A DNA stretch of 64,000 nucleotides from Methanogenium organophilum (GTDB lineage: Archaea > Halobacteriota > Methanomicrobia > Methanomicrobiales > Methanomicrobiaceae), in NCBI RefSeq assembly GCF_026684035.1, contig NZ_CP113361.1, positions 806,001-870,000 of the forward strand, read 5' to 3'. How positions within the stretch are numbered: the first letter of the stretch is position 1; the number at the start of each line of letters is the position of its first letter. Below are positions 27,481 through 39,635 of the stretch, one piece after another. The notes under the pieces are model-generated. The model was not told the DNA's origin, searched no databases, and saw only the letters and a list, made by a program, of their open reading frames with translations. Position numbers and translations under genes: made by a program.

Positions 27481-29136
27481 TCAGACAGTCAGATACGGAT
27501 CAAGAGGGGTCTCTCCGACCACTGCGTGGAATGCATCGAGAGTGGCAAACGGTCGCTTTGCAACGATGGAAACAGCCCGTTTTTTTCCGACTCCCGGAAT
27601 GGAGCGAAGGGCCGAGGCAGGAAGCGTATTGACATTGACCGGGATCGGCATGGCAGTCACGGACCGGCGCCCATGATCACAGATGACCGCATCCACTACC
27701 GTCCCCTCAGCAATCTCTGCCGGTATGCCGGTAAGGATGGGATAGGATCCCATCTGACGCCCGAATGACACCCTGCCGCACTCCTCGACATAGATGTCGC
27801 GCAGGAGCGTTCCTGCCGGAAATACCTTCTGCAGCATTGGGACGTCAAAGGTCTTTCGCACATGCTCGCGGAAGGTGCGGAAGCGGGCATCATGCTCACC
27901 GAGGGTATTCTCCTCCCATGCCTGCGTGCCCTCGAAGGGCATCAACTGGCGGATATTGACCCGGCGCACCAGAAGGCCTGATGCAAGAAGTTCTCCAAGA
28001 AATGCCTCATTTTTGTCATACGTTCCTTCCGTCTCACCGGCAAGTCCGCAGACAAAGTTCAGCCCCGGCAGAAGATGCGGAACGCCATCATCCCGGACCC
28101 CCCCTACTTCGTTAACGATGCGAATGGCATCCATCACCATCGCGGCATCAGCCTTGAGGTTATTTGCAGCGACCACAGCAGGGTCTGCCGTCTCCATTCC
28201 AAAGGCGGCCACGTCTCCTGCAGTATGATACCGAACGATAACTGCAAGTGCCTCGCGGGCGGCCTCCGGGTTGCGGGCGATGGTACCGGGATTGACATTA
28301 TCGATGTGCAGGGTCCGCAGGTCCGGTGCCGCCTCCCGGATGCCCGCAAAGAGCGTCTCCAGTGCCCCTGCATCGGGGGCAGGGAATTCCTTCTTCCCGC
28401 GTGTGCCATAGGCAAGGATATCGGGCTGACGCCCGAGCCGGAAGTGAACCGCACCGTGTCCTGCGAGGGCTGCACACTCTGCATGAACGTCTTCAGCCGG
28501 TCGATACTGCGGCAGGCCGTAAAAGGGTTCGGTGCAGAACGAACAGCCGCCGGTTATTGCACGCGAACAGCCGCGGGCGGTCTCAATCTCGCAGATGACC
28601 CAGGGAAACCGGGGGTGCTCCATAATGATGCCGCTGCCCGCGACAAGCCAGCGGGAGAAGTCAGGGTAGGAGAGGACACCATCCGGGCGCCCCCCTTCAA
28701 CAAGAGAGGCCAGCGCTGCCGGGACGTCACCTTCAAGCACGTGGTCAAACCCGGAAACAGCCTGCCGCACTGCGGCCTCGCCCCCGCCCGGACTATAACC
28801 AAGGGTGACCGGCCCGCCGAGGACAGTGGAGGGGCCCCGGAGAGTGGCTGCCACCTGTCGTATCTCGGTCAGGGTGGCGGGAGTGCCTGCAAAATAGGTG
28901 CCGGGCACCGTAACTCCCGCGATCATCACCACAAGGTCTGCCCGGTCAAGGGACCCGAAGAGGGACGGGTCCTTCCTCAGCTGGTCGATGGTCAGGTATC
29001 GGACATGATACCCGGCTTCCGTGCAAACCCCTGCCACTGCGCGAATATTCGGTGAAATATAGGGCGAAACTCCGAGGCATGCCGGTTCATCAACATAGCC
29101 GTCTACTATCCAGGCAGAGGGTGTATCAGAGGTCAT
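27481..29136 (-). CDS. Radical SAM protein with CX7CX2C cluster motif and C-terminal HhH
   Basis: 551 residues from ATG 29136. An N-terminal cobalamin-domain-like Rossmann region (1-165) is followed by a radical SAM core in which the cluster cysteines are C190, C198 and C201 (RGCSRAITGGCSFC), spaced CX7CX2C rather than the classical CX3CX2C. The C-terminus has a helix-hairpin-helix (ALRSIPGVGKKRAVSIVAK, about 508-530), a nucleic-acid-binding motif. Known relatives are an uncharacterised archaeal group. HhH suggests an RNA or DNA substrate, but that is inference. It overlaps mptE by 11 nt. Confidence 0.85.
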   Translation of the reverse strand: MTSDTPSAWIVDGYVDEPACLGVSPYISPNIRAVAGVCTEAGYHVRYLTIDQLRKDPSLFGSLDRADLVVMIAGVTVPGTYFAGTPATLTEIRQVAATLRGPSTVLGGPVTLGYSPGGGEAAVRQAVSGFDHVLEGDVPAALASLVEGGRPDGVLSYPDFSRWLVAGSGIIMEHPRFPWVICEIETARGCSRAITGGCSFCTEPFYGLPQYRPAEDVHAECAALAGHGAVHFRLGRQPDILAYGTRGKKEFPAPDAGALETLFAGIREAAPDLRTLHIDNVNPGTIARNPEAAREALAVIVRYHTAGDVAAFGMETADPAVVAANNLKADAAMVMDAIRIVNEVGGVRDDGVPHLLPGLNFVCGLAGETEGTYDKNEAFLGELLASGLLVRRVNIRQLMPFEGTQAWEENTLGEHDARFRTFREHVRKTFDVPMLQKVFPAGTLLRDIYVEECGRVSFGRQMGSYPILTGIPAEIAEGTVVDAVICDHGRRSVTAMPIPVNVNTLPASALRSIPGVGKKRAVSIVAKRPFATLDAFHAVVGETPLDPYLTV

Positions 29137-29746
29137 AGCCAATAAGGGAGAGCAGATCACGTGCCCAGAGAAGTTTTCCCTGCTTCATCGGTGGCACCGA
29201 CCGGTCGTCAAGATCGAACCCGGCAAACCGGATCGCTGCCGCCCCAAGGGCATCCGCGGCAAAGGCGGCGCGGTCACCGTCGGTGAACCCGCCCCAGTTG
29301 TGGACATGCCCGAACGGCCGTGTCTGGCAGGTGAGAACGAGTGGCCCAACAAATCGCGGCACCCAGTGGCGGAGAAGCGGCATATTATCACCGTGCCCGT
29401 GCACCACCATCACCGCACCCTGTCGATTCATCTCAAAAAAGGAATCCTCTGCACCGTCAAGATCGGTAAAGACCGCATCCGGCAGGATACCCGCCCTGAA
29501 GAGCACATCCGCTGCTGCATCAGCTGCAAGGACAGTCCCCTCTATCCTGTCCGTTTCCCGGAGAAGAGTCGGGGCGTTGCCGCATACCGTGACTACCTCT
29601 CCTTTGATACGCTTTGCAAGCAGCACAGAATCATCTGTGTCCGAGAGGGATCCAATCAGGCGTGCCGCCTCTTCATCCCCTGCCCGGTCAAAGCCAAACG
29701 TTTCACAGATGGCGGTGTAGTGAGGCTCCCAGTCCTCAAACCTCAT
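29126..29746 (-). CDS. mptE: 6-hydroxymethyl-7,8-dihydropterin pyrophosphokinase MptE-like
   Basis: 206 residues of the DUF115 family. GNAPTLL, ADAAADVLFRAGILPDAVFTDLDG (in part) and the HGHGDNM motif agree with archaeal MptE, which pyrophosphorylates the pterin for methanopterin synthesis. It overlaps both neighbours by 11 nt (DHH protein upstream, radical SAM downstream), a tightly coupled operon. Slightly shorter than some homologues, but the motifs are intact. Confidence 0.88.
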   Translation of the reverse strand: MRFEDWEPHYTAICETFGFDRAGDEEAARLIGSLSDTDDSVLLAKRIKGEVVTVCGNAPTLLRETDRIEGTVLAADAAADVLFRAGILPDAVFTDLDGAEDSFFEMNRQGAVMVVHGHGDNMPLLRHWVPRFVGPLVLTCQTRPFGHVHNWGGFTDGDRAAFAADALGAAAIRFAGFDLDDRSVPPMKQGKLLWARDLLSLIGYDL

Positions 29747-31205
29747 TGGGTTCCTCTTCTTCTACACCGACGATCTCCATAAACCGATGGAGAATCGGGT
29801 CGATGATAAGGTCCAGCAAGTCATCCTTGTTGCGCGCCATCGTAAAGACGCTCAGGGGGATATTTGCGGCACCCATCGCAGAATGTCCACCGGCCTCACC
29901 GATCTCACCAAATGCTTCCTCCATCGCCTGACCAATATTGAGACGGAGATCCTTGTTGCGGGCGGAGAATGAGATCACCTGGTCCGTGATGCCATACACA
30001 ATGGCAGTGTTGACCCCTTCCAGCTGAATGAGCATATCAGCTGCCTGCGGAATGGCATCCCGGTTGCGCACATACCCGATACTAGAGAAGAGATATCCGG
30101 AGACGATCTTCCGGTTCCGGATAGCCGCTCCCATCACCTCAAGAGTCTCCTGTGAGACCGTCTGGGACGTAATCTTACCCAGAAGATCTTCATCCGTCAG
30201 GGGCAGAAGGAAGGCAGAAAGAGTGAGATCAAGAGGAGAGGTGTTGCGGCGGAAACCGCGCGTATCGGCCATAATGCCATAAAAAAGAGCAGTTGCAACG
30301 GTTTTCTCTACCGTGACACCCAGTTCCTGCATATACTGGGTCATCAGGCTTGCCGTCGCGCCCATATCCGGCCGCCGATCGAGGAAATCATACCCGTTCT
30401 TGACATCATGATTCGGATGATGGTCAATTACAATATTAACCCGGTCATCCTTTGCGAGGGCATTGTTGATTCCCGGACCCGGAGAATCGACAATCGCAAG
30501 GTAATTGCATTCAACAAGCGATTCCGGCGAGATCCGGTCCATCTGGATATCCAGCAGGTTCACAAAGGCGCGATTCTCCTGGTGCCCGATCTTCCCGTCA
30601 TAGAGAATCCTGCAGGTGAGATTTCCCTTTGAGGCCGCATTTCCGAGCGCACAGAGCGCCATCGCACTGGATATTGTATCCGGGTCGGGATTTGTATGCG
30701 TCACGATACCCATTGTGCCGCGCCATGAAGCAAGCAGATCATAGAGTTTATGCGCCTGGCGTGAGGACTGCACTTTCCGGGCGTAATGCACGGCCTTCTT
30801 TGCAAAGACCTCCTGCGGGTGCAGGACCACATCGGCGCCCACAGCGCCATAGAGATCTTTTCCACCCACTTCTACCGTCCGTGCAATGATATATGCGCCC
30901 GGATTTGCCTCTTTTATCGTCCGCACCGCTGCGAGATTTGCTTTCTGCTCACTAGAGAGGACAAACGCCACTTTCGGGACCGGAATATCCTTCAGCATTG
31001 CAGTATCGCTGATATCCCTGCAGAACGCCTCATATTTCTGGTCACGGAGGTCCTGAACCTTCTTCTCATCCTGGTCGATGATGATGATATCATCAGTCTC
31101 CTTGAGAATTTCGTACAGCACATTATACCCGATACTGCCACACCCAAGTATCAGGTATTCCACCGATGACGCCGACTGAGATCCTTTAGGATGATTCTCC
31201 GGCAT
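29736..31205 (-). CDS. TrkA-N domain fused to DHH-DHHA1 phosphoesterase
   Basis: 489 residues. The N-terminal Rossmann NAD-binding TrkA-N/RCK domain (about 15-140: ILGCGSIGYNVLYE) precedes a DHH domain (THTNPDPDTISSA; VIDHHPNHD) and a DHHA1 tail (GGHSAMGAANIP). DHH-DHHA1 proteins hydrolyse nanoRNA, pApA or cyclic di-AMP. With TrkA-N it could link nucleotide signalling to potassium status, since c-di-AMP controls K+ channels elsewhere; that is inference. First gene of the operon with mptE and the radical SAM protein. Confidence 0.9.
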   Translation of the reverse strand: MPENHPKGSQSASSVEYLILGCGSIGYNVLYEILKETDDIIIIDQDEKKVQDLRDQKYEAFCRDISDTAMLKDIPVPKVAFVLSSEQKANLAAVRTIKEANPGAYIIARTVEVGGKDLYGAVGADVVLHPQEVFAKKAVHYARKVQSSRQAHKLYDLLASWRGTMGIVTHTNPDPDTISSAMALCALGNAASKGNLTCRILYDGKIGHQENRAFVNLLDIQMDRISPESLVECNYLAIVDSPGPGINNALAKDDRVNIVIDHHPNHDVKNGYDFLDRRPDMGATASLMTQYMQELGVTVEKTVATALFYGIMADTRGFRRNTSPLDLTLSAFLLPLTDEDLLGKITSQTVSQETLEVMGAAIRNRKIVSGYLFSSIGYVRNRDAIPQAADMLIQLEGVNTAIVYGITDQVISFSARNKDLRLNIGQAMEEAFGEIGEAGGHSAMGAANIPLSVFTMARNKDDLLDLIIDPILHRFMEIVGVEEEEPNEV

Positions 31206-31499: not shown

Positions 31500-32390
31500 T
31501 CACTTCCCAATCATGAGAAGCATCTCCTCAAGACTGAGGTAGCGCGATTCGATGCGCCGGACAGTACCGCCGGCAGAGGCCACCGCGGCAGTCACCAGAT
31601 TGAGGTCATCCATACTCTCTGCAACCGCCACATACTCCCCCCCTTCCTCTTTAAAGGTGAGCGATGGCGGCAGGGTACGAACATCTGCTGCGACAAAACG
31701 TATCTGATAGGAAAGGGATCCAAAATCCTCTCTGAGCTCGTCCATCGTCCCAAAAGCGGCGACCTTTCCCTGCCGCAGGATGAGTACCTGATCACAGATC
31801 TTCTCCACCTGATAGAGATTATGGGCGGACAGAAGAATGGTTTTCCGGCATCTGTCACGCAGGTGCGCGAGGTAGTCGATGATGTAGCGCGAGGTCATCG
31901 GGTCAAGGCCGGATGTCGGTTCGTCATAGATAAGAAGGGAGGGTTTATGCAAAAGCGAACGGGCAATCGCTACCTTGCGCCTCATCCCTTTGGAGAGTTC
32001 ACCGATACGTTTCCCCCCTGAATCCAGCTTAAGTGAGGTGAGCAGCTCCTCACTTCGCAGGCGGCACTCGTCCGCAGGGATCCCATATATCTCTCCAAAG
32101 AAGCGAAGATAATTCTCAACCGTCATTGTCTCATAGAGGCGGGACTCCTCCGGGAGGTACCCCAACGTCTCCTTCAGGCGTGCCGGGTCACGCCGCACAT
32201 CAATGCCTTCAATAACAAGGTCACCCGCGGTCGGCCGAATCAGACCCGCCATACACTTCAGAAGTGTTGTCTTCCCGGCGCCATTGTGTCCGATGATCCC
32301 GAATATACCAGGGTCCTCAAAGGAGAAACTCACCTCATCCAGTGCCCGGAATGTGCCGTAATCCTTTACCAGTTTCCGTGCCTCAATCAT
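31500..32390 (-). CDS. ABC transporter ATP-binding protein
   Basis: 296 residues from ATG 32390, chosen because GGTGA lies 5 nt upstream; the frame is open to 32423. Walker A GHNGAGKTT, signature LSKGMRRKVAIARS, Walker B LLIYDEPTSGLD and the H-loop (SAHN) are intact. It belongs to the CcmA/NatA-type drug and peptide exporter ATPases. It is divergent from two permease genes, one fused to a PrsW-like protease, and probably energises them. The C-terminal about 80 residues are family-typical but unspecific. Confidence 0.93.
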   Translation of the reverse strand: MIEARKLVKDYGTFRALDEVSFSFEDPGIFGIIGHNGAGKTTLLKCMAGLIRPTAGDLVIEGIDVRRDPARLKETLGYLPEESRLYETMTVENYLRFFGEIYGIPADECRLRSEELLTSLKLDSGGKRIGELSKGMRRKVAIARSLLHKPSLLIYDEPTSGLDPMTSRYIIDYLAHLRDRCRKTILLSAHNLYQVEKICDQVLILRQGKVAAFGTMDELREDFGSLSYQIRFVAADVRTLPPSLTFKEEGGEYVAVAESMDDLNLVTAAVASAGGTVRRIESRYLSLEEMLLMIGK

Positions 32391-32550
32391 CAGCTCACCG
32401 TCGAAATAGTGCTTTGCAGTCATATGATTTAACCCCCCGTGTCAGGGAATCCTGTCCTGCACTGTCCTGCATCAGAGGTTTCCATCGGACACACATCATG
32501 ACAATTTGACTGAAATAGACAGATATTCCGGCACATGACAGGTGCTAATA

Positions 32551-32561
32551 CTTAAAATAGG
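32551..32561 (+). promoter_or_regulatory. TATA element of the ABC permease operon
   Basis: ACTTAAAATAG about 30 nt before ATG 32586, suggesting a very short leader. Confidence 0.4.
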
Positions 32562-32585
32562 ATTGACTGCCACCAAAGCATAGGA

Positions 32586-34373
32586 ATGCTGTCAGCGCTA
32601 CGTCAGATACTGACAATCAGCAGATGGGAGGTGCGGCGGTCTGCGACCACCATGCCACGTGAGATCCTCCCCGTAGCGGTAGTGCTGTTTATCCTTCTCA
32701 TCATAGTGACCGGCTACACACAGGAAAGTGGGATTCACCTGCAGGATCGGATGTATACAGCAGGTGTTGATTCAGGAGAAACGGGGGCCATCATCCTCGG
32801 CGATCCTCGCTTCACCGTCTACCTCACGACAGCAGGAGAGACAGACCTGACCATAGTCCCCCCGTATGTCAGTTCTGCGAATACAGACCGGGGGGAGTCC
32901 GCCCTCAAGGCCTTCCAGACAGACTATACACGCTACGTTACGGCACAATATAACCGTGAAGACGACCTCTTTGCCGCGTATCCCCTCTGGATAGATATCC
33001 AATATGTAAAGAGCGAACTTGATTTCACGGCGACAGAGGCGGGCAGAGGTATCGCAGGAGCCCCGAACCCATATCAAAATCCGGTTCCGGAGCGGCCAGT
33101 ACGGGCAGTTCCCGAACCATCCGCTGACGTCGGCTACACCAAAGAAGAACTTCGGGCCGAACTGGTTACTTCTGAAGGCGAAGACAGCACGGTTGCACGC
33201 TACACCGACGTCGTTGCAGGGGAGGGCGCACTAGGCGACTTCAAAACGCCGTCCCAACTCACCCCCCCACTCCCTTTTGACGCCATTGTACTGGTCTTTG
33301 TCTTCATCTTCCCCCTCTACTTCACGTCCCAGTTCTATATGATGTCCATCATGAACGAACGCATTGAGCGCAAGGGAGAGATCCTCCTGTCAAGCCCGCT
33401 TCACCCGTCGGCAATTGTCATCGGGAAGATGCTTCCTTACCTTGTGGTGATGATCACGGTCACGACCGTCCTCTCCCTTACAACAGGCGAGACAGCAGTT
33501 GTCCTTGCGGCGGTCTTCCCGATCATTCTCTTCTTCCTTGCGGCAGCCCTCTTCATCGGCATGGCCTCACGGAGCTTTAAGGAGCTCTCGTTTATCTCGA
33601 TCTTCTTCTCAACTGTTGCGACGTCGTACCTCTTCTTCCCCAGCATCTTTGCCAATATCCATGTGATCTCACTCATCTCCCCCCTCACCCTCATCATCTA
33701 TGGGATTGAAGGCACTCCCTTCACCCTCGCTGATTACTTCTATTCCACCTTCCTCTTCTGGGTTACCGCAGCAATTCTCTTTGCCGTATGCGTCATCAAC
33801 TTCAACGAAGAACGCCTCTTTACCCTCCATCCCCTGCGGGCAAAGGTGCGGGAGTACATCGGGAGTGCGGTCTCTGAGAAGCATCCGTTTGCTTCACTCT
33901 TCGGGATCACCATCTTCTCCATCCCCTTTGTCCTGATGGCACAGCTGATGCTTCTTGTCCTGCTCTTCAACCTCCCGATGCCGCTTTCCCTCGTAATCCT
34001 GATCTTCACCGCGGCATTCATTGAGGAATTGGCAAAGTCAGTCGGCATCTACGCAATAGCTGTGGAACAACCGGCATTTCTTACATGGAAAAATGTCATC
34101 GCAGCATCTCTTGCGGTGATGGCCGGGTTCTTTTTCGGCGAGAAGCTTCTCCTCTTTGCAACACTCGCCCAGATCTCAGAATCAGTCTTCGGCGCCGCCC
34201 TTTTCACCAGCCTACAGGTGCTCTGGCTGCCCCTGACCCTCCACTTCACCGGCGCCTTCATCACGGTTTCACTCATCAAAATCTTCGGGCAGAGGGCCTA
34301 TCCGTTCGCACTTATCATCGCATCCTTCGTCCATGGGACATACAATCTGTTCTTTATCACCGGAGGTTTCTGA
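32586..34373 (+). CDS. ABC-2 permease fused to PrsW-like intramembrane protease
   Basis: 595 residues. Residues 1-420 are an ABC-2-type permease: one N-terminal span (28-44), a large outward loop (45-230), and about five more spans with the RIERKGEILLSSPLHP coupling region (259-274). After a short linker, residues 440-595 form a second membrane domain with PrsW-type motifs: EELAK (480-484), GFFFGE with E519, a histidine at 553 in LHFTGA, and VHGTYN (H583, N587). PrsW is a glutamic-type membrane protease that cuts signalling anchors. The fusion suggests coupling of export and cleavage, which is inference. It is followed 2 nt later by the second permease. Confidence 0.85.
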   Translation: MLSALRQILTISRWEVRRSATTMPREILPVAVVLFILLIIVTGYTQESGIHLQDRMYTAGVDSGETGAIILGDPRFTVYLTTAGETDLTIVPPYVSSANTDRGESALKAFQTDYTRYVTAQYNREDDLFAAYPLWIDIQYVKSELDFTATEAGRGIAGAPNPYQNPVPERPVRAVPEPSADVGYTKEELRAELVTSEGEDSTVARYTDVVAGEGALGDFKTPSQLTPPLPFDAIVLVFVFIFPLYFTSQFYMMSIMNERIERKGEILLSSPLHPSAIVIGKMLPYLVVMITVTTVLSLTTGETAVVLAAVFPIILFFLAAALFIGMASRSFKELSFISIFFSTVATSYLFFPSIFANIHVISLISPLTLIIYGIEGTPFTLADYFYSTFLFWVTAAILFAVCVINFNEERLFTLHPLRAKVREYIGSAVSEKHPFASLFGITIFSIPFVLMAQLMLLVLLFNLPMPLSLVILIFTAAFIEELAKSVGIYAIAVEQPAFLTWKNVIAASLAVMAGFFFGEKLLLFATLAQISESVFGAALFTSLQVLWLPLTLHFTGAFITVSLIKIFGQRAYPFALIIASFVHGTYNLFFITGGF

Positions 34374-34375
34374 AC

Positions 34376-35452
34376 ATGAACCTGCAGCATATATTTATCA
34401 TCGCAAAAAAGGAGCTCCGGGCAATAAATTCCGAAAAAACGATTATTCTCGCAATACTCCTGCAACTCTTCATTGCGATGTTCTCATCGTTTCTCATCGT
34501 CGGCCTCGCGGCCATGTATGACCCCGACTCCCTCTCAGCGTATTCGCACCAAAAGTATCCGGTTGCCTACACCGGGTCGCCCTCGCCTCTTGCAGACCTG
34601 CTGCGGGAGAGCAAAGACTTTGTCGTCTATGATATGGACCTTGCAACAGCGGTCACCGCCCTTGAAGAGCGCAAACTCAGTGCGGTGGTCTGGGTGCCGG
34701 ATACGTCCCCTGACGCCGATGAGCCGGTGAAGATAACCCTCTATACCATTAAAAATGACATCCAGTCATCGGTTGTGAACAGTAAACTCAGAGACGTCTT
34801 TGTCACCTATGAGAACACCCTGCGGGGCATCCGGGCCGACCGCATATCATCTGATCCCATTGTGATCGAACTCCCCCCGGAGGTGCCGGGAACAAACTTC
34901 TATGAGTTTGTCTACGGTCTTCTCATTCCTCTTCTCATCTTTATGCCCGCGATTATCTCAGCAGCGCTGATCATCGATATGATCACCGAGGAATTCCAGC
35001 ATGACACCATCGAGACGCTCATTTCAACACCAGTCACCTTCACCGAGATGATATGGGGGAAAGTGGCCGCATGTTTTGTCATTGTACCGGTGCAGGCCTT
35101 CGTCTGGATCGCTCTGATGATAATAAACGGCATCCATGTGGCTGGCGTTGTACCGATTCTCCTCCACGTGAGCGTGGCATCGCTTCTCATGATCCTCCTC
35201 TCCACCTTTGTCGCACTCCACTACCGGGAACGTACAAGCGCACAGTTCATCTTCTCCACTGCCCTTGTAGTGGTGCTCCTCGGCGTTCTTGCCCTGCCGG
35301 TCAACCCGGCAAACCTGATTGTTCTTCTCTCCATTGGAGCTGTCGGAAGTGAACACTGGGCAGCCCTCGCAGTGATGGTGGGAGTCCTGGTGTTTGGCAT
35401 AGCCGCACTCACCCGGTATGCACAGCGCGTCGAGAAGACCGCCCTTCAATAA
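34376..35452 (+). CDS. ABC-2 type permease, second subunit
   Basis: 358 residues from ATG 34376, 2 nt after the fused permease stop; earlier in-frame codons are antisense or out-of-frame to that gene. An N-terminal span is followed by an extracytoplasmic loop (about 45-180) and five membrane segments. The ITEEFQHDTIETLISTPVT region (about 202-221) is the standard ABC-2 coupling helix. It pairs with the upstream permease and the divergent ATPase to form an exporter of unknown substrate, NatAB-like in organisation. Confidence 0.9.
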   Translation: MNLQHIFIIAKKELRAINSEKTIILAILLQLFIAMFSSFLIVGLAAMYDPDSLSAYSHQKYPVAYTGSPSPLADLLRESKDFVVYDMDLATAVTALEERKLSAVVWVPDTSPDADEPVKITLYTIKNDIQSSVVNSKLRDVFVTYENTLRGIRADRISSDPIVIELPPEVPGTNFYEFVYGLLIPLLIFMPAIISAALIIDMITEEFQHDTIETLISTPVTFTEMIWGKVAACFVIVPVQAFVWIALMIINGIHVAGVVPILLHVSVASLLMILLSTFVALHYRERTSAQFIFSTALVVVLLGVLALPVNPANLIVLLSIGAVGSEHWAALAVMVGVLVFGIAALTRYAQRVEKTALQ

Positions 35453-35475: not shown

Positions 35476-35506
35476 CAAGTTTGTGAAAAGAGCGTGCCTG
35501 ATCGAT

Positions 35507-36808
35507 ATGAAATGGGTCGCACCTCTTCTTATATTCTGCACGCTTGCTGCAGGGGCTGTCTTCCCGGCAGGGGCAGCAACGCCGGAACAGCCAATCGCAG
35601 GAATTGCCCACTATGATATCTATACCAATGTGGATGCAGCTGACATCTACTTTGATGGTGTATACATGGGCAGAACAGCAGCCGGGTATCTCCAGTTGAC
35701 AGTTGAAACACCTTCTCCATATACCCGGGCAATGGCATCCCGCGCAGGATATAACAATGCCTACGCAAATCTCCCGACGGCATCACCAGGCGGCATATAC
35801 TCGATAAGCCTCATTTTGACATCAATCGCACCGTCCTACGGCACCCTCTCTGTCACCTCATCCCCAACAGGGGCTTCGGTCTATATTGACAATGTCTACA
35901 AGGGTCTCACACCACAGCAGGTAAGCCTCATCCACAACCAGTACACCCTCCGGCTGGAACACAGCGGATACAACAGATATACCCAGCAGATTTGGGTGTA
36001 TGGCGGGCAGACAACAACAGTGAATGCAGCCCTTGTTCCATCCACCACATATGGCACCATTTCGGTTTCCAGCTCACCATCACTGGCCAATATCTATCTG
36101 GACGGTAGTTTCCGCGGCACGACCACCCAGACCATCAGCGGGCTTAATGCAGGGTCATACTTTGTCGAACTCACAAAACCCGGATATCAGGACTGGACCG
36201 GGTCAGTACGGGTGTACCCGGGACAGGTCACCTCAGTCTTCCAGACACTGGTACCGGTGCAGTCACCGACCACCGGTGCCCTTTCGGTCACATCAAACCC
36301 GTCCTATGCTGCTGTCTATCTGGACGGAGGCTATCAGGGACAGACAGCACCCGGCACACCTCTTGTGATCAGTGCAGTCACTGCCGGTAGCCATACCGTC
36401 ACCGTACGTCTCTCCGGATATAAGGATTCGGTCTCTACCGTGACCGTCAACTCCGGACAGACCACCACAGTGAGCGCCGAACTTATCCCTTCCGGAGGAG
36501 GATCTGGCACCCTCTCTGTTACATCCTCACCAGCGGGAGCGGATGTGTACGTCAATAATGTCCGGGCAGGCATCACCCCCGTTACCTCAGACGAGATGAC
36601 GCCGGGTACCTATACCGTGGCCATCCGTCTGGCCGGATACACGGAATGGTCAGCAGAGACTGAAGTGACAGCAGGCTCAACCTCGTATGTTTCAGCAAGT
36701 CTTACCCCTCTTCCTGCACAGTCACCCCCGTCACTTTTCCTGCCCGCCGGCGTGCTCATCGCACTGGGCGGATTCTTTCTGTGTCGCCGAAAGGAGAGGG
36801 AATACTGA
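35507..36808 (+). CDS. Surface PEGA-repeat protein 1, membrane-anchored
   Basis: 433 residues from ATG 35507. Signal peptide (MKWVAPLLIFCTLAAGAVF), one degenerate and four clear PEGA repeats of about 70 residues (each with GTLSVTSSPTGA-type start and an IDN or LDG turn), and a C-terminal hydrophobic anchor (LFLPAGVLIALGGFFLC) followed by RRKEREY. PEGA domains are surface structural or adhesive modules, common in Methanomicrobiales. The next gene is a paralogue. Substrate or partner unknown. Confidence 0.88.
   Translation: MKWVAPLLIFCTLAAGAVFPAGAATPEQPIAGIAHYDIYTNVDAADIYFDGVYMGRTAAGYLQLTVETPSPYTRAMASRAGYNNAYANLPTASPGGIYSISLILTSIAPSYGTLSVTSSPTGASVYIDNVYKGLTPQQVSLIHNQYTLRLEHSGYNRYTQQIWVYGGQTTTVNAALVPSTTYGTISVSSSPSLANIYLDGSFRGTTTQTISGLNAGSYFVELTKPGYQDWTGSVRVYPGQVTSVFQTLVPVQSPTTGALSVTSNPSYAAVYLDGGYQGQTAPGTPLVISAVTAGSHTVTVRLSGYKDSVSTVTVNSGQTTTVSAELIPSGGGSGTLSVTSSPAGADVYVNNVRAGITPVTSDEMTPGTYTVAIRLAGYTEWSAETEVTAGSTSYVSASLTPLPAQSPPSLFLPAGVLIALGGFFLCRRKEREY
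36440..36465 (+). repeat. 26-nt exact repeat, copy 1
   Basis: Identical to 37896-37921 in the paralogous neighbour. Encodes the end of a PEGA unit (VTVNSGQTTT). Points to recent duplication or gene conversion. Confidence 0.85.
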
Positions 36809-36938: not shown

Positions 36939-38261
36939 ATGATACGAAAATGCTACGTGCTCCTCATGAGCATGCTGATATTCACTGCTATTGCAGTCCC
37001 TGCTGTAGTGGCTGCCGACACCACCATAGGCACTACCATAGGTGGTGAACAGGGCTGGTATGACATCTACACCAATGTGGATGGTTGTTCCATCTACTTT
37101 GACGGAGAATACAAGGGAACGACCACAGGAGGAATGCTGAGTGTCGGAGTCTATTCTACTGCAGCACCGTACAAAACGGTGACTGCAGAAAAGTCAGGCT
37201 ACACGTCTGCATCCCAGTCTTTACCTGTAACCCCCGGAGCGGGAGAACACCAGTCTGTCTACCTGACCTTAAACCCAGTGACGCCAACCACCGGAAACCT
37301 CAAGATCAGCTCTTCACCATCCGGTGCAGCGGTCTATGTGAACAGTGTATATTATGGCACAACCCCACATACCGTCTACAACCTCCCTGCCGGAAATAAT
37401 GACCTGAGGCTCACCTATTCCGGATACAAGGACTACCGGGACACAGTCCAGATCGTCGCCGGCCAGACACAGAGCACCTATGCAGCCCTTACCGCAGAAG
37501 TGACCTATGGTACCCTCTCTGTGTCATCCACCCCGTCCAATGCAAACATCTACCTGGACGGATCATACCGTGGCACTGCCCCCCGAACCATCGGCGGCCT
37601 CTCCCAGGGTGCACACACCCTTGAAGTCACCATGCCGGGATACCAGGAATGGACAAACACCATCAATATCCATTCAAATCAGGTGACCTATGTGACGGCA
37701 ACACTCACTGCAGACCCCCAGAGCACGACCGGGTCCATCTCTGTCACCTCAAACCCGTCGTATGCCTCCGTCTACATTGACGGCGTCTACTACGGCACCA
37801 CCAACCCCGGCAATGCCCTCCTTGCAAACAACATTGCAGCAGGCAGCCACACCGTAAAAGTCACCCTGTCCGGGTACGATGACTCTGTTTCAACGGTGAC
37901 CGTCAACTCCGGACAGACCACTACTGTCAGTGCAAACCTTGCCGGTGGCGCGACCGGTAACGGGGCAATGGACATTTCATCGTCACCCACCGGTGCCACA
38001 GTCTACCTGAACAATGTGAACAAGGGTATTACTCCTGTCACCCTGAGTGATCTGACACCGGGCGGATACACCGTCACCCTCGAACTCTCCGGGTACACCA
38101 CCTGGTCTGAAGTCGTCACGGTGAACTCCGGCGCGACATCCACAGTATCGGCAAACCTTGCCCCGACTACCACTGCGACCCAGAGTCCGGCACCCCTGCT
38201 TCCGGTAATCGGTGCTCTTGGTGCCTGTGCACTCATTCTTGCCGCCCGCCGGCAGGAATAA
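36939..38261 (+). CDS. Surface PEGA-repeat protein 2, membrane-anchored
   Basis: 440 residues. Same plan as its upstream paralogue: signal peptide (residues 1-26), a degenerate N-terminal unit starting GWYDIYTNVDGCSIYFDG, four PEGA repeats, and a C-terminal span (PLLPVIGALGACALILA) ending RRQE. A TTTATATT element at 36903-36910 gives it its own promoter with little or no leader. The two genes share long near-identical segments, so they arose by tandem duplication. Confidence 0.88.
   Translation: MIRKCYVLLMSMLIFTAIAVPAVVAADTTIGTTIGGEQGWYDIYTNVDGCSIYFDGEYKGTTTGGMLSVGVYSTAAPYKTVTAEKSGYTSASQSLPVTPGAGEHQSVYLTLNPVTPTTGNLKISSSPSGAAVYVNSVYYGTTPHTVYNLPAGNNDLRLTYSGYKDYRDTVQIVAGQTQSTYAALTAEVTYGTLSVSSTPSNANIYLDGSYRGTAPRTIGGLSQGAHTLEVTMPGYQEWTNTINIHSNQVTYVTATLTADPQSTTGSISVTSNPSYASVYIDGVYYGTTNPGNALLANNIAAGSHTVKVTLSGYDDSVSTVTVNSGQTTTVSANLAGGATGNGAMDISSSPTGATVYLNNVNKGITPVTLSDLTPGGYTVTLELSGYTTWSEVVTVNSGATSTVSANLAPTTTATQSPAPLLPVIGALGACALILAARRQE
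37896..37921 (+). repeat. 26-nt exact repeat, copy 2
   Basis: Second copy of the sequence at 36440-36465, in the matching PEGA unit. Confidence 0.85.
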
Positions 38262-38333
38262 TAATTCCATCATTTTTTCTCCCGGATACGTGGATCTGTA
38301 TCGTTAATACGACAGAAAACAAGACTAGTGATA

Positions 38334-39635
38334 ATGAAGGTCTTCGTCATCTCCCCGGGAATGTATACATATGGTGCAATGGTCATCGCAGGCATTGTCC
38401 GTGATGCAGGATATGAAGTAACACTCACCCGCGCATTAGAGGCAACACCGGGAGAGATCGTATTTTTGAGCCTTTATTCTACGCAGAACCTGATGGACGA
38501 GGCACTCAAATCATTCATTGACGAATACCGGAAGTCCGGCGGCAGAGTCTATATCGGAGGGCCGGTTTCGGCCGTTCCCGTGATGGTGCTCGGCGAACTG
38601 GCACCGGACGCAGTCATCTGTGGGGAGGGGGAAATGGGAGCCCTTGCCCTCCTGCGTGAAGGGGTTTCAGAAGCAGTCCCGGGGATTACATTCATGGGCC
38701 CGGAAGGGATTGTCTCCACCGGTCCGTCACCACCCTGTCAGGTTTCGCGTCCACTGCCCCTTATCCCGGCCGATATCGCTGTGCAGGACGTTCGGGGGGC
38801 ATCGGCTTATATCGAGACACAGCGGGGCTGCATCGGTGCCTGCACCTTCTGCCAGGTACCACGGTTCTTCGGGCGTGATATCCGCTCACGGCCCCTGGAT
38901 GAGATCCTCACAGAGGTGCAGGCCTTTAAGGATGCAGGGGCGAGGCGACTTTCGGTCTCCGGCGGAACAGGGTCACTCTACGGGTATGCTGACGGGAAAC
39001 TCAATGATGAGGCATTCGCAGAACTTCTGGAAGGGATGGCCGCAATCATGGGGCCGAAGAATGTCTCGTCCCCTGACATCCGGGTGGACTGCATCTCAGA
39101 CACTGTCCTTGACGCCATTCGGGACTATACCATTGGCTGGGTATTCTTCGGTCTCGAATCCGGCAGTGACCGGGTGCTGCGCCTGATGGGGAAGGGGGCA
39201 ACGGCAGCACAGGCAGGCGAGGCGATTGAGGCATGCCGGGCACACGGGCTGCACGTTGCTGGCAGTTTTATTGTAGGCTACCCCACCGAAACAGCAGCAG
39301 AATATGAAGAGACAAAGGATTTCATCGCAACATATGCCCTTGACGATGTCTTCATCTCCGCTGCAGAACCCATCCCCGGCACGCCGCTTGCAGACCTTGC
39401 CCTGCGGACGCCTGATGCAGACAATCCTGCCTTCGCCCCCCATACTGGTGAATACAAATCCCTGCACCTGACAGAGGCCGAGGCGCGCTCGTTTGACCTC
39501 AGGATGCATGCTGATCTTTTCAAGCCCGGTCTGCATGTGGTTACCGACCAGATCTTTAATGCCTATCTGGCAGAAGTGAAAACGGACGGCGAAACGGTCC
39601 GCAGGGCAACATATTTACTCCGCCGATATGCCTGA
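38334..39635 (+). CDS. Cobalamin-binding radical SAM enzyme (MgmA-like candidate)
   Basis: 433 residues. N-terminal B12-binding-like Rossmann domain (1-125) and a radical SAM core with the classical CX3CX2C cluster motif C166, C170, C173 (QRGCIGACTFC). The SAM-binding GG-type stretch is SVSGGTGSLYG. In methanogens this class includes B12 radical SAM C-methyltransferases such as MgmA, which methylates a glutamine of methyl-coenzyme M reductase; assignment to MgmA is possible but unproven. The gene is not next to mcr genes. Start may be GTG 38328. Confidence 0.82.
   Translation: MKVFVISPGMYTYGAMVIAGIVRDAGYEVTLTRALEATPGEIVFLSLYSTQNLMDEALKSFIDEYRKSGGRVYIGGPVSAVPVMVLGELAPDAVICGEGEMGALALLREGVSEAVPGITFMGPEGIVSTGPSPPCQVSRPLPLIPADIAVQDVRGASAYIETQRGCIGACTFCQVPRFFGRDIRSRPLDEILTEVQAFKDAGARRLSVSGGTGSLYGYADGKLNDEAFAELLEGMAAIMGPKNVSSPDIRVDCISDTVLDAIRDYTIGWVFFGLESGSDRVLRLMGKGATAAQAGEAIEACRAHGLHVAGSFIVGYPTETAAEYEETKDFIATYALDDVFISAAEPIPGTPLADLALRTPDADNPAFAPHTGEYKSLHLTEAEARSFDLRMHADLFKPGLHVVTDQIFNAYLAEVKTDGETVRRATYLLRRYA

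What the first reader, a model, noticed from the sequence alone, without database searches (positions are those of the whole stretch)
31500..35452. ABC exporter with permease fused to a PrsW-like protease
The first permease carries, after residue 440, a second membrane domain with EELAK, FFFGE and two histidine motifs, the hallmarks of PrsW glutamic proteases. A divergent ATPase and a second permease complete the transporter. The layout suggests a machine that exports a peptide or lipid and cuts a membrane protein, perhaps a toxin, signal or sigma-like anchor. I know of no described system with this exact fusion.
Basis: partly seen in the sequence, partly recalled or inferred. Interest (0 to 1): 0.62.

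Follow-up and report, generated by a model that had tools for sequence, protein, structure and literature searches.

The report
Archaeal ABC exporter with built-in protease
Many archaea carry a conserved three-gene membrane pump in which one subunit has a PrsW-type protein-cutting enzyme built into it, which suggests a machine that cuts something inside the cell membrane and then pushes the product out; what it cuts is unknown.

Summary
Window 31500-35452 encodes a divergent ABC ATPase, a 595-residue permease whose last ~165 residues form a five-helix PrsW-like domain, and a second permease starting 2 nt later. The domain aligns end to end with standalone PrsW (HHalign E 1.7e-11, motifs in register) and not with CPBP/Rce1. 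The fusion occurs in 26 of 28 genomes of the family and 147 of 295 of the phylum, nearly always with both partner genes; no fourth gene is shared throughout. The permease is a type V (NosY-like) exporter; charge bias and the model put the active site in the outer half of the membrane. Likeliest mechanism (inferred): membrane-inserted peptides or anchors are cut and the fused exporter extracts the product, a one-machine counterpart of Eep/PptAB, RasP/EcsAB or TmcP/TmcBC. The substrate is unknown; toxin or sigma-anchor roles have no support. I found no paper describing the fusion, and the one annotated homologue I read is called only 'ABC transporter permease subunit'.

The parts
31500..32423 (-). 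ABC ATPase (DrrA-like, 307 aa), divergently transcribed from the permeases. Walker A (GHNGAGKTT), Walker B (LLIYDEP) and H-loop (SAH) intact; signature reads LSKGM.
   Evidence: ORF and translation; PF00005 4e-30; TIGR01188 drrA 7e-66, below its cut-off; motif conservation in 85 homologues
32424..32585 (.). 162-nt divergent intergenic region between ATPase and perm1
   Evidence: sequence
32586..34373 (+). perm1-PrsW fusion, 595 aa: ABC-2/type V permease (residues 1-430) plus C-terminal PrsW-like intramembrane protease domain (about 434-595)
   Evidence: translation; PF12698 residues 233-401, 1.3e-7, 31.4 bits against a 31.6 cut-off; model pLDDT 82; NosY match Z 14.2 over residues 6-411
32733..33275 (+). 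extracytoplasmic domain between TM1 and TM2 (residues about 50-230)
   Evidence: AlphaFold model; lower K+R density than inner loops
33885..34370 (+). PrsW-like domain, five predicted TM helices (residues 434-595)
   Evidence: domain model pLDDT 92; HHalign to standalone PrsW 97.6%, E 1.7e-11; 12 of 36 homologous domains match PF13367; direct pairwise match of this domain to a PrsW-FHA protein, E 8.3e-6
34023..34037 (+). motif 1 EELAK (E480, E481, K484)
   Evidence: E, E and K invariant in 164/164
34128..34145 (+). motif 2 FFFGEK (E519, K520)
   Evidence: E and K invariant in 164/164; standalone PrsW has N after the Glu in 22 of 27
34242..34244 (+). motif 3 His (H553)
   Evidence: invariant 164/164
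34332..34346 (+). motif 4 HGTYN (H583, N587)
   Evidence: H invariant 164/164; N in 150, D in 14
34376..35452 (+). perm2, second ABC-2 permease (358 aa), 2 nt after perm1
   Evidence: PF12698 3.7e-18; best NCBIfam match NF041647 (ABC permease/CPBP protease fusion), permease part only, 2e-13

Best explanation
It is probably a heterodimeric type V ABC exporter (perm1 + perm2 + two copies of the ATPase) with an intramembrane protease of the PrsW superfamily built into one permease. Shown by sequence: the domain composition, intact catalytic motifs, the constant three-gene unit and purifying selection. Supported by model and charge bias: the active site lies in the outer half of the membrane, in the same chain as the exporter. 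Inferred: a membrane-inserted peptide or single-span anchor (for example a leftover signal peptide, a cut C-terminal anchor or a small hydrophobic peptide) enters the protease from the lipid, is cut, and the product is handed to the exporter, which uses ATP to pull it out of the membrane and release it outside. This would be a one-machine version of separate protease/exporter pairs such as Eep/PptAB, RasP/EcsAB and TmcP/TmcBC. Because no fourth gene travels with the module throughout the phylum, the substrate is probably encoded elsewhere, and a general membrane-clearing or envelope-processing role is likelier than a dedicated precursor peptide.
For: PrsW homology: HHalign 97.6%, E 1.7e-11 with all motifs aligned, against 1.3% for CPBP; 12 of 36 domains match PF13367, best 1.5e-9, several over the Pfam cut-off in whole-genome search; the window domain directly matches a PrsW-FHA protein, E 8.3e-6. 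Active site kept in 164/164 and in 79/80 named records, the other cut at a contig end. Exporter: NosY-like fold, Z 14.2 over residues 6-411; PF12698 in perm2 and, marginally, perm1; ATPase motifs intact. Unit: perm2 and ATPase beside perm1 across families; pairwise distances of the four parts correlate at r 0.93-0.97, though shared species history alone would give a high value. Topology: 1.6-2.7 K+R per 10 residues in predicted inner loops against under 0.1 in the outer loops of the protease domain. Precedents: EcsAB is needed for RasP proteolysis and is proposed to clear peptides from the membrane (PMC2996298); PptAB exports mature peptides made with Eep (PMC7564271); TmcBC, a type V transporter, exports a transmembrane-helix peptide after cutting by the intramembrane protease TmcP (PMC13252029).
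Against: No substrate is identified and no activity is shown. The precedents use S2P metalloproteases, not PrsW. Absence of a conserved substrate gene is weak evidence. That both domains act on the same molecule rests on the fusion alone; the PrsW domain could instead cut a regulator. The heterodimer is assumed from gene order; no complex was modelled.
Confidence: 0.5

Rival explanations
1. The exporter senses and gates: the ABC part detects an envelope signal and switches the PrsW domain on, which then makes a site-1-type cut in a membrane-anchored regulator, as B. subtilis PrsW cuts RsiW. Export is absent or secondary.
For: PrsW's known role is site-1 cleavage (PMC4602095; PMC3482391). The predicted active site is on the outer side. 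PrsW domains elsewhere are fused to signal-sensing domains (PMC3482391), including a PrsW-FHA protein seen here.
Against: No regulator gene travels with the module. Archaea lack sigma/anti-sigma pairs (established knowledge).
Confidence: 0.2
2. The module serves particular secreted or surface proteins: the protease trims or releases their membrane anchors and the exporter extrudes them or their stubs. Downstream surface-protein genes in two lineages would be examples of clients.
For: In many Methanosarcinaceae a secreted CARDB/DUF11-type protein of about 600 residues with a C-terminal TM helix starts within about 30 nt of perm2; in Methanogenium, Methanofollis and related genomes PEGA surface proteins with a C-terminal TM tail follow. 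In the window the first PEGA gene starts about 30 nt after perm2.
Against: Different proteins in different lineages, and none in haloarchaea and others. Archaeosortase A is present in 286 of 295 genomes whether or not the module is there, so anchor processing does not track the module.
Confidence: 0.2
3. The domain is a non-catalytic scaffold, like APH-1 in gamma-secretase or SpdC, and the machine is an ordinary ABC exporter of a lipid or small molecule.
For: APH-1 is the best structural match of the domain alone (Z 10.5), and SpdC is among the matches (Z 6.2).
Against: All predicted catalytic residues are invariant in 164/164; a scaffold would not be expected to keep every Glu and His.
Confidence: 0.08

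Closest known systems
PrsW (PF13367; MEROPS M82), e.g. B. subtilis PrsW and the haloarchaeal PrsW-like HVO_0408
   Same: Same ordered motifs EExxK, FxxxE, H, HxxxN/D on a helical membrane core; HHalign E 1.7e-11 over 164 columns.
   Different: Fused to an ABC permease; five helices instead of the typical eight (PMC3482391); invariant Lys instead of the usual Asn after the motif-2 Glu; window member below Pfam detection.
NF041647 ABC transporter permease subunit/CPBP intramembrane protease
   Same: An ABC-2 permease fused to an intramembrane protease of the same superfamily; perm2 matches its permease part, 2e-13.
   Different: Protease is CPBP and is fused to a perm2-like permease; none of 148 phylum genomes passes its cut-off; here the protease is PrsW-like and sits on perm1. 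NCBIfam holds few ABC-2 permease models, so the perm2 match may only reflect that.
RasP/EcsAB and Eep/PptAB
   Same: An intramembrane protease working with an ABC exporter, proposed to clear or shown to export membrane-derived peptides (PMC2996298, PMC7564271).
   Different: Separate proteins; S2P zinc proteases, not PrsW.
TmcP/TmcBC (TMcin pathway)
   Same: Type V ABC transporter that exports a transmembrane-helix peptide after an intramembrane protease cuts it (PMC13252029).
   Different: Separate proteins, S2P protease, dedicated precursor peptide encoded alongside; none found here.
NosDFY (NosY permease)
   Same: Closest solved fold of the permease part, Z 14.2.
   Different: No protease domain; serves nitrous oxide reductase maturation (established knowledge).

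Membership tests
PrsW family (PF13367 / M82) | EExxK motif in a TM helix | tested here: met
   E480, E481, K484 invariant 164/164, in predicted helix 467-494
PrsW family (PF13367 / M82) | Second motif FxxxE and two further His in TM helices, the last in HxxxN/D | tested here: met
   F515 163/164, E519, H553, H583 164/164; position 587 N 150, D 14
PrsW family (PF13367 / M82) | Homology to recognised PrsW proteins | tested here: met
   HHalign 97.6%, E 1.7e-11, 164 columns; 96.9%, E 1.4e-10 with the 21 strongest PrsW only; window protein directly matches a PrsW-FHA protein, E 8.3e-6
PrsW family (PF13367 / M82) | Window protein itself matches the Pfam model (a detection test rather than a defining feature) | tested here: not met
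   No match in the window protein, but homologues of the same architecture pass the cut-off. Hence called PrsW-like, a divergent subfamily.
PrsW family (PF13367 / M82) | Asn after the motif-2 Glu (common, not universal) | tested here: not met
   Lys in 164/164; in standalone PrsW N in 22 of 27
PrsW family (PF13367 / M82) | Proteolytic activity | not testable with these tools
   no assay
CPBP / Rce1-like (PF02517) | EExxxR motif and profile homology | tested here: not met
   motif reads EExxK; HHalign 1.3%; best PF02517 hit among 36 domains E 0.19
Type V ABC exporter (ABC-2, PF12698) | Permease fold | tested here: met
   NosY Z 14.2, 3.7 A over 210 residues, model residues 6-411; perm2 PF12698 3.7e-18; perm1 31.4 bits, just under the 31.6 cut-off
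Type V ABC exporter (ABC-2, PF12698) | Partner ATPase with intact Walker motifs | tested here: met
   PF00005 4e-30; conserved in 85 homologues
Type V ABC exporter (ABC-2, PF12698) | Export activity | not testable with these tools
   no assay
NF041647 ABC_perm_CPBP | Score over the curated cut-off (435 bits) with a CPBP domain in the same protein | tested here: not met
   perm2 50 bits over the permease part only; perm1 no match

The most novel reading that the evidence does not exclude
A single machine that couples glutamic-type intramembrane proteolysis to ATP-driven extraction of the product from the membrane: an archaeal cut-and-eject system for membrane peptides, widespread in the phylum and undescribed.
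Probability: 0.4. Interest if true: 0.8.

Novelty: new variant of a known kind. Interest (0 to 1): 0.55.

Why it matters
How cells clear signal peptides and cut transmembrane stubs from the membrane is poorly understood in archaea, and what EcsAB-type exporters carry when they work with intramembrane proteases is an open question (PMC2996298). A conserved fusion physically ties the two activities together and makes the link testable in one protein with point mutations. It also adds an unannotated protease to half the sampled genomes of a major archaeal phylum; the window's own genome has no other PrsW-type protein over the Pfam threshold.

Tried and rejected
Degenerate membrane region: rejected, 164/164 keep the motifs and dN/dS is low. 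CPBP membership: rejected. Artefact or isolated fusion: rejected, same ORF in 164 homologues. Link to archaeosortase A: tested, but ArtA is near universal (286/295), so uninformative. A constant fourth gene (substrate or regulator): not found. NF041647-type fusions in the phylum: none over cut-off in 148 genomes. Sequence relatives of perm1 in the PDB: none. Foldseek alone gave no significant match for the full model or the domain; VIA rows between APH-1 and Rce1 include unrelated transporters (LptG 8.7, NosY 6.5), so the Rce1 match (5.8) proves nothing by itself and the APH-1 match is supporting evidence only. One of the 148 phylum 'matches' (G038) turned out to be a PrsW-FHA protein hit through the protease domain only, and was removed from the count. 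One same-genus copy (G008) is broken by frameshifts in a poor assembly and was left out of the census. Literature searches for the fusion returned nothing, but only open-licence papers are held, and the main PrsW/CPBP/APH-1 classification paper (Pei et al. 2011) could not be read. Distribution outside the phylum was not tested properly: all 80 kept genome-contig loci are archaeal but the list was cut at 80; among plasmids there was one haloarchaeal hit only.
Full report
What is there. The window lies in a one-contig 2.65-Mb genome, most likely a Methanogenium: a genome of the same genus group (G009) has a contig of exactly the length of the M. marinum record NZ_JAKELO010000002.1. Three genes occupy 31500-35452: an ABC ATPase on the minus strand, a 595-residue permease on the plus strand, and a second permease starting at ATG 34376, 2 nt after the first permease's stop. 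Pfam finds ABC_tran in the ATPase (4e-30) and ABC2_membrane_3 in perm2 (3.7e-18) and perm1 (1.3e-7, just under the cut-off). The ATPase has intact Walker A, Walker B and H-loop and an LSKGM signature.

The second domain. Residues 434-595 of perm1 form five predicted helices, modelled with pLDDT 92 when folded alone and well in the full model except for one outer loop. The window protein itself does not reach the PrsW model PF13367, but its homologues do: 12 of 36 homologous domains match, best 1.5e-9, and several pass the curated cut-off in whole-genome searches. The window protein also matches a 586-residue PrsW-FHA protein of another lineage directly, through the protease domain only (E 8.3e-6). 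Profile to profile, the domain aligns with standalone archaeal PrsW over 164 columns at 97.6%, E 1.7e-11, with EELAK, FFFGE, H553 and H583 on PrsW's EExxK, FxxxE, H and HxxxN; against CPBP/Rce1 proteins it gives 1.3%. Repeating with only the 21 strongest PrsW sequences gives 96.9%, E 1.4e-10. The best solved structural match to the domain is APH-1 of gamma-secretase (Z 10.5, 4.5 A, 159 residues), above a background of unrelated transporters at Z 6-9. APH-1 and CPBP are described as distant relatives of PrsW (PMC3482391; PMC4602095).

Census. The protein is found in 26 of 28 genomes of the family (17 of 17 good-quality ones) and in 148 of 295 genomes drawn from the phylum, of which one is the PrsW-FHA protein just mentioned, leaving 147. 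I fetched all of these and aligned them with the family members: of 165 sequences, 164 have E480, E481, K484, E519, K520, H553 and H583 without exception, and the 165th is cut by a contig end before the domain. One further same-genus copy, in a 59%-complete assembly, is broken by frameshifts and was not counted. In 80 named records (Methanolobus, Methanoperedens, Methanomethylovorans, Syntrophoarchaeum, Methanoregula, Methanolinea, Methanoculleus, Methanogenium, Methanofollis, Methanocalculus, Natrarchaeobius and others) 79 have the motif chain and the last is cut short. K520 replaces the Asn that 22 of 27 standalone PrsW carry, so this is a distinct subfamily. dN/dS of the domain between congeners is about 0.08-0.12.

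The unit. ATPase and perm2 accompany perm1 across families. In the named set perm2 is directly downstream in 75 of 80, and the ATPase is divergent in 70 of the 71 where it is on the stretch. In haloarchaea the ATPase is co-directional in the loci read, overlapping perm1 in Haladaptatus. Distances of permease, protease, perm2 and ATPase correlate at r 0.93-0.97; shared species history alone would also give high values. No fourth gene is shared throughout. Within Methanosarcinaceae a secreted protein of about 600 residues with CARDB/DUF11-like domains and a C-terminal helix follows perm2 closely, and in Methanogenium, Methanofollis and some relatives PEGA-domain surface proteins follow.

Topology and mechanism. 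The permease part matches NosY, a type V exporter subunit, with Z 14.2 over residues 6-411. Averaged over 68 homologues, predicted inner loops are rich in K+R and outer loops poor, consistent with N-in, six permease helices, and a protease whose first helix starts on the inside. E519, H553 and H583 then fall in the outer halves of their helices and E480 near the middle, so the active site should face the outer half of the membrane. This fits PrsW's site-1 role, but is a model. From this anatomy the likeliest mechanism is cutting of a membrane-inserted peptide or anchor by the PrsW domain and ATP-driven extraction of the product by the exporter. Three known pairs make this credible: Ecs is needed for RasP proteolysis and has been proposed to clean peptides from the membrane (PMC2996298; PMC7478892); PptAB exports mature peptides produced with Eep, and direct hand-over was suggested (PMC7564271); TmcBC, a type V transporter, exports a transmembrane peptide cut by TmcP (PMC13252029). 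In all of these the protease is a separate S2P enzyme. Neither cleavage nor transport has been shown here. Rivals are a transporter-gated signalling protease, a processor of particular surface proteins, and a non-catalytic scaffold; the last is disfavoured by the invariant catalytic set.

Novelty. I found no paper that describes a PrsW-ABC permease fusion; a survey of PrsW fusions lists toxins, PilZ, cyclic-nucleotide-binding, FHA and Zn-ribbon domains but no ABC permease (PMC3482391); and the one annotated homologue I read is called 'ABC transporter permease subunit'. The idea of an ABC permease fused to a protease of this superfamily does exist in NCBIfam as NF041647 (CPBP), and perm2 is a distant relative of its permease part. 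I therefore class this as a new variant of a known kind.

Noticed in passing
35483-36808 and 36939-38261 (+): Two tandem PEGA-domain surface proteins with signal peptide and a C-terminal TM tail ending in basic residues; the first starts about 30 nt after perm2. Possible archaeosortase-type sorting tails; an ArtA homologue is present in the genome.
   Followed up: partly
L134:8906-10759 and equivalents in about 20 Methanosarcinaceae loci: A secreted CARDB/DUF11-like protein of about 600 residues with C-terminal TM helix directly downstream of perm2, apparently a lineage-specific fourth gene of the unit.
   Followed up: partly
G008:C1:111732-113537 (L009): One same-genus homologue (72% identity) is broken by several frameshifts and stops, while the perm2 next to it reads well near its end; pseudogene or poor assembly (59% complete genome).
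   Followed up: partly
phylum census: The module is absent from some genera whose relatives have it (for example g19 in the order, and g71 with 3-4 Mb genomes in family f8), a loss pattern that could be used to look for linked genes.
   Followed up: no
L111:1414-3174 (+): A PrsW domain followed by three FHA-like regions in one 586-residue archaeal protein; looks like a signalling peptidase and is not part of the ABC module.
   Followed up: no
29736-31205 (-): TrkA_N domain fused to DHH/DHHA1 phosphoesterase next to the ATPase; homologues sit near the module in several other loci, mostly Methanomicrobiales (cluster 5).
   Followed up: no
27481-29160 (-) and 38328-39635 (+): Two radical-SAM-type proteins flank the region; the second has a weak B12-binding-like N-terminus. 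The first was only read from its sequence.
   Followed up: no
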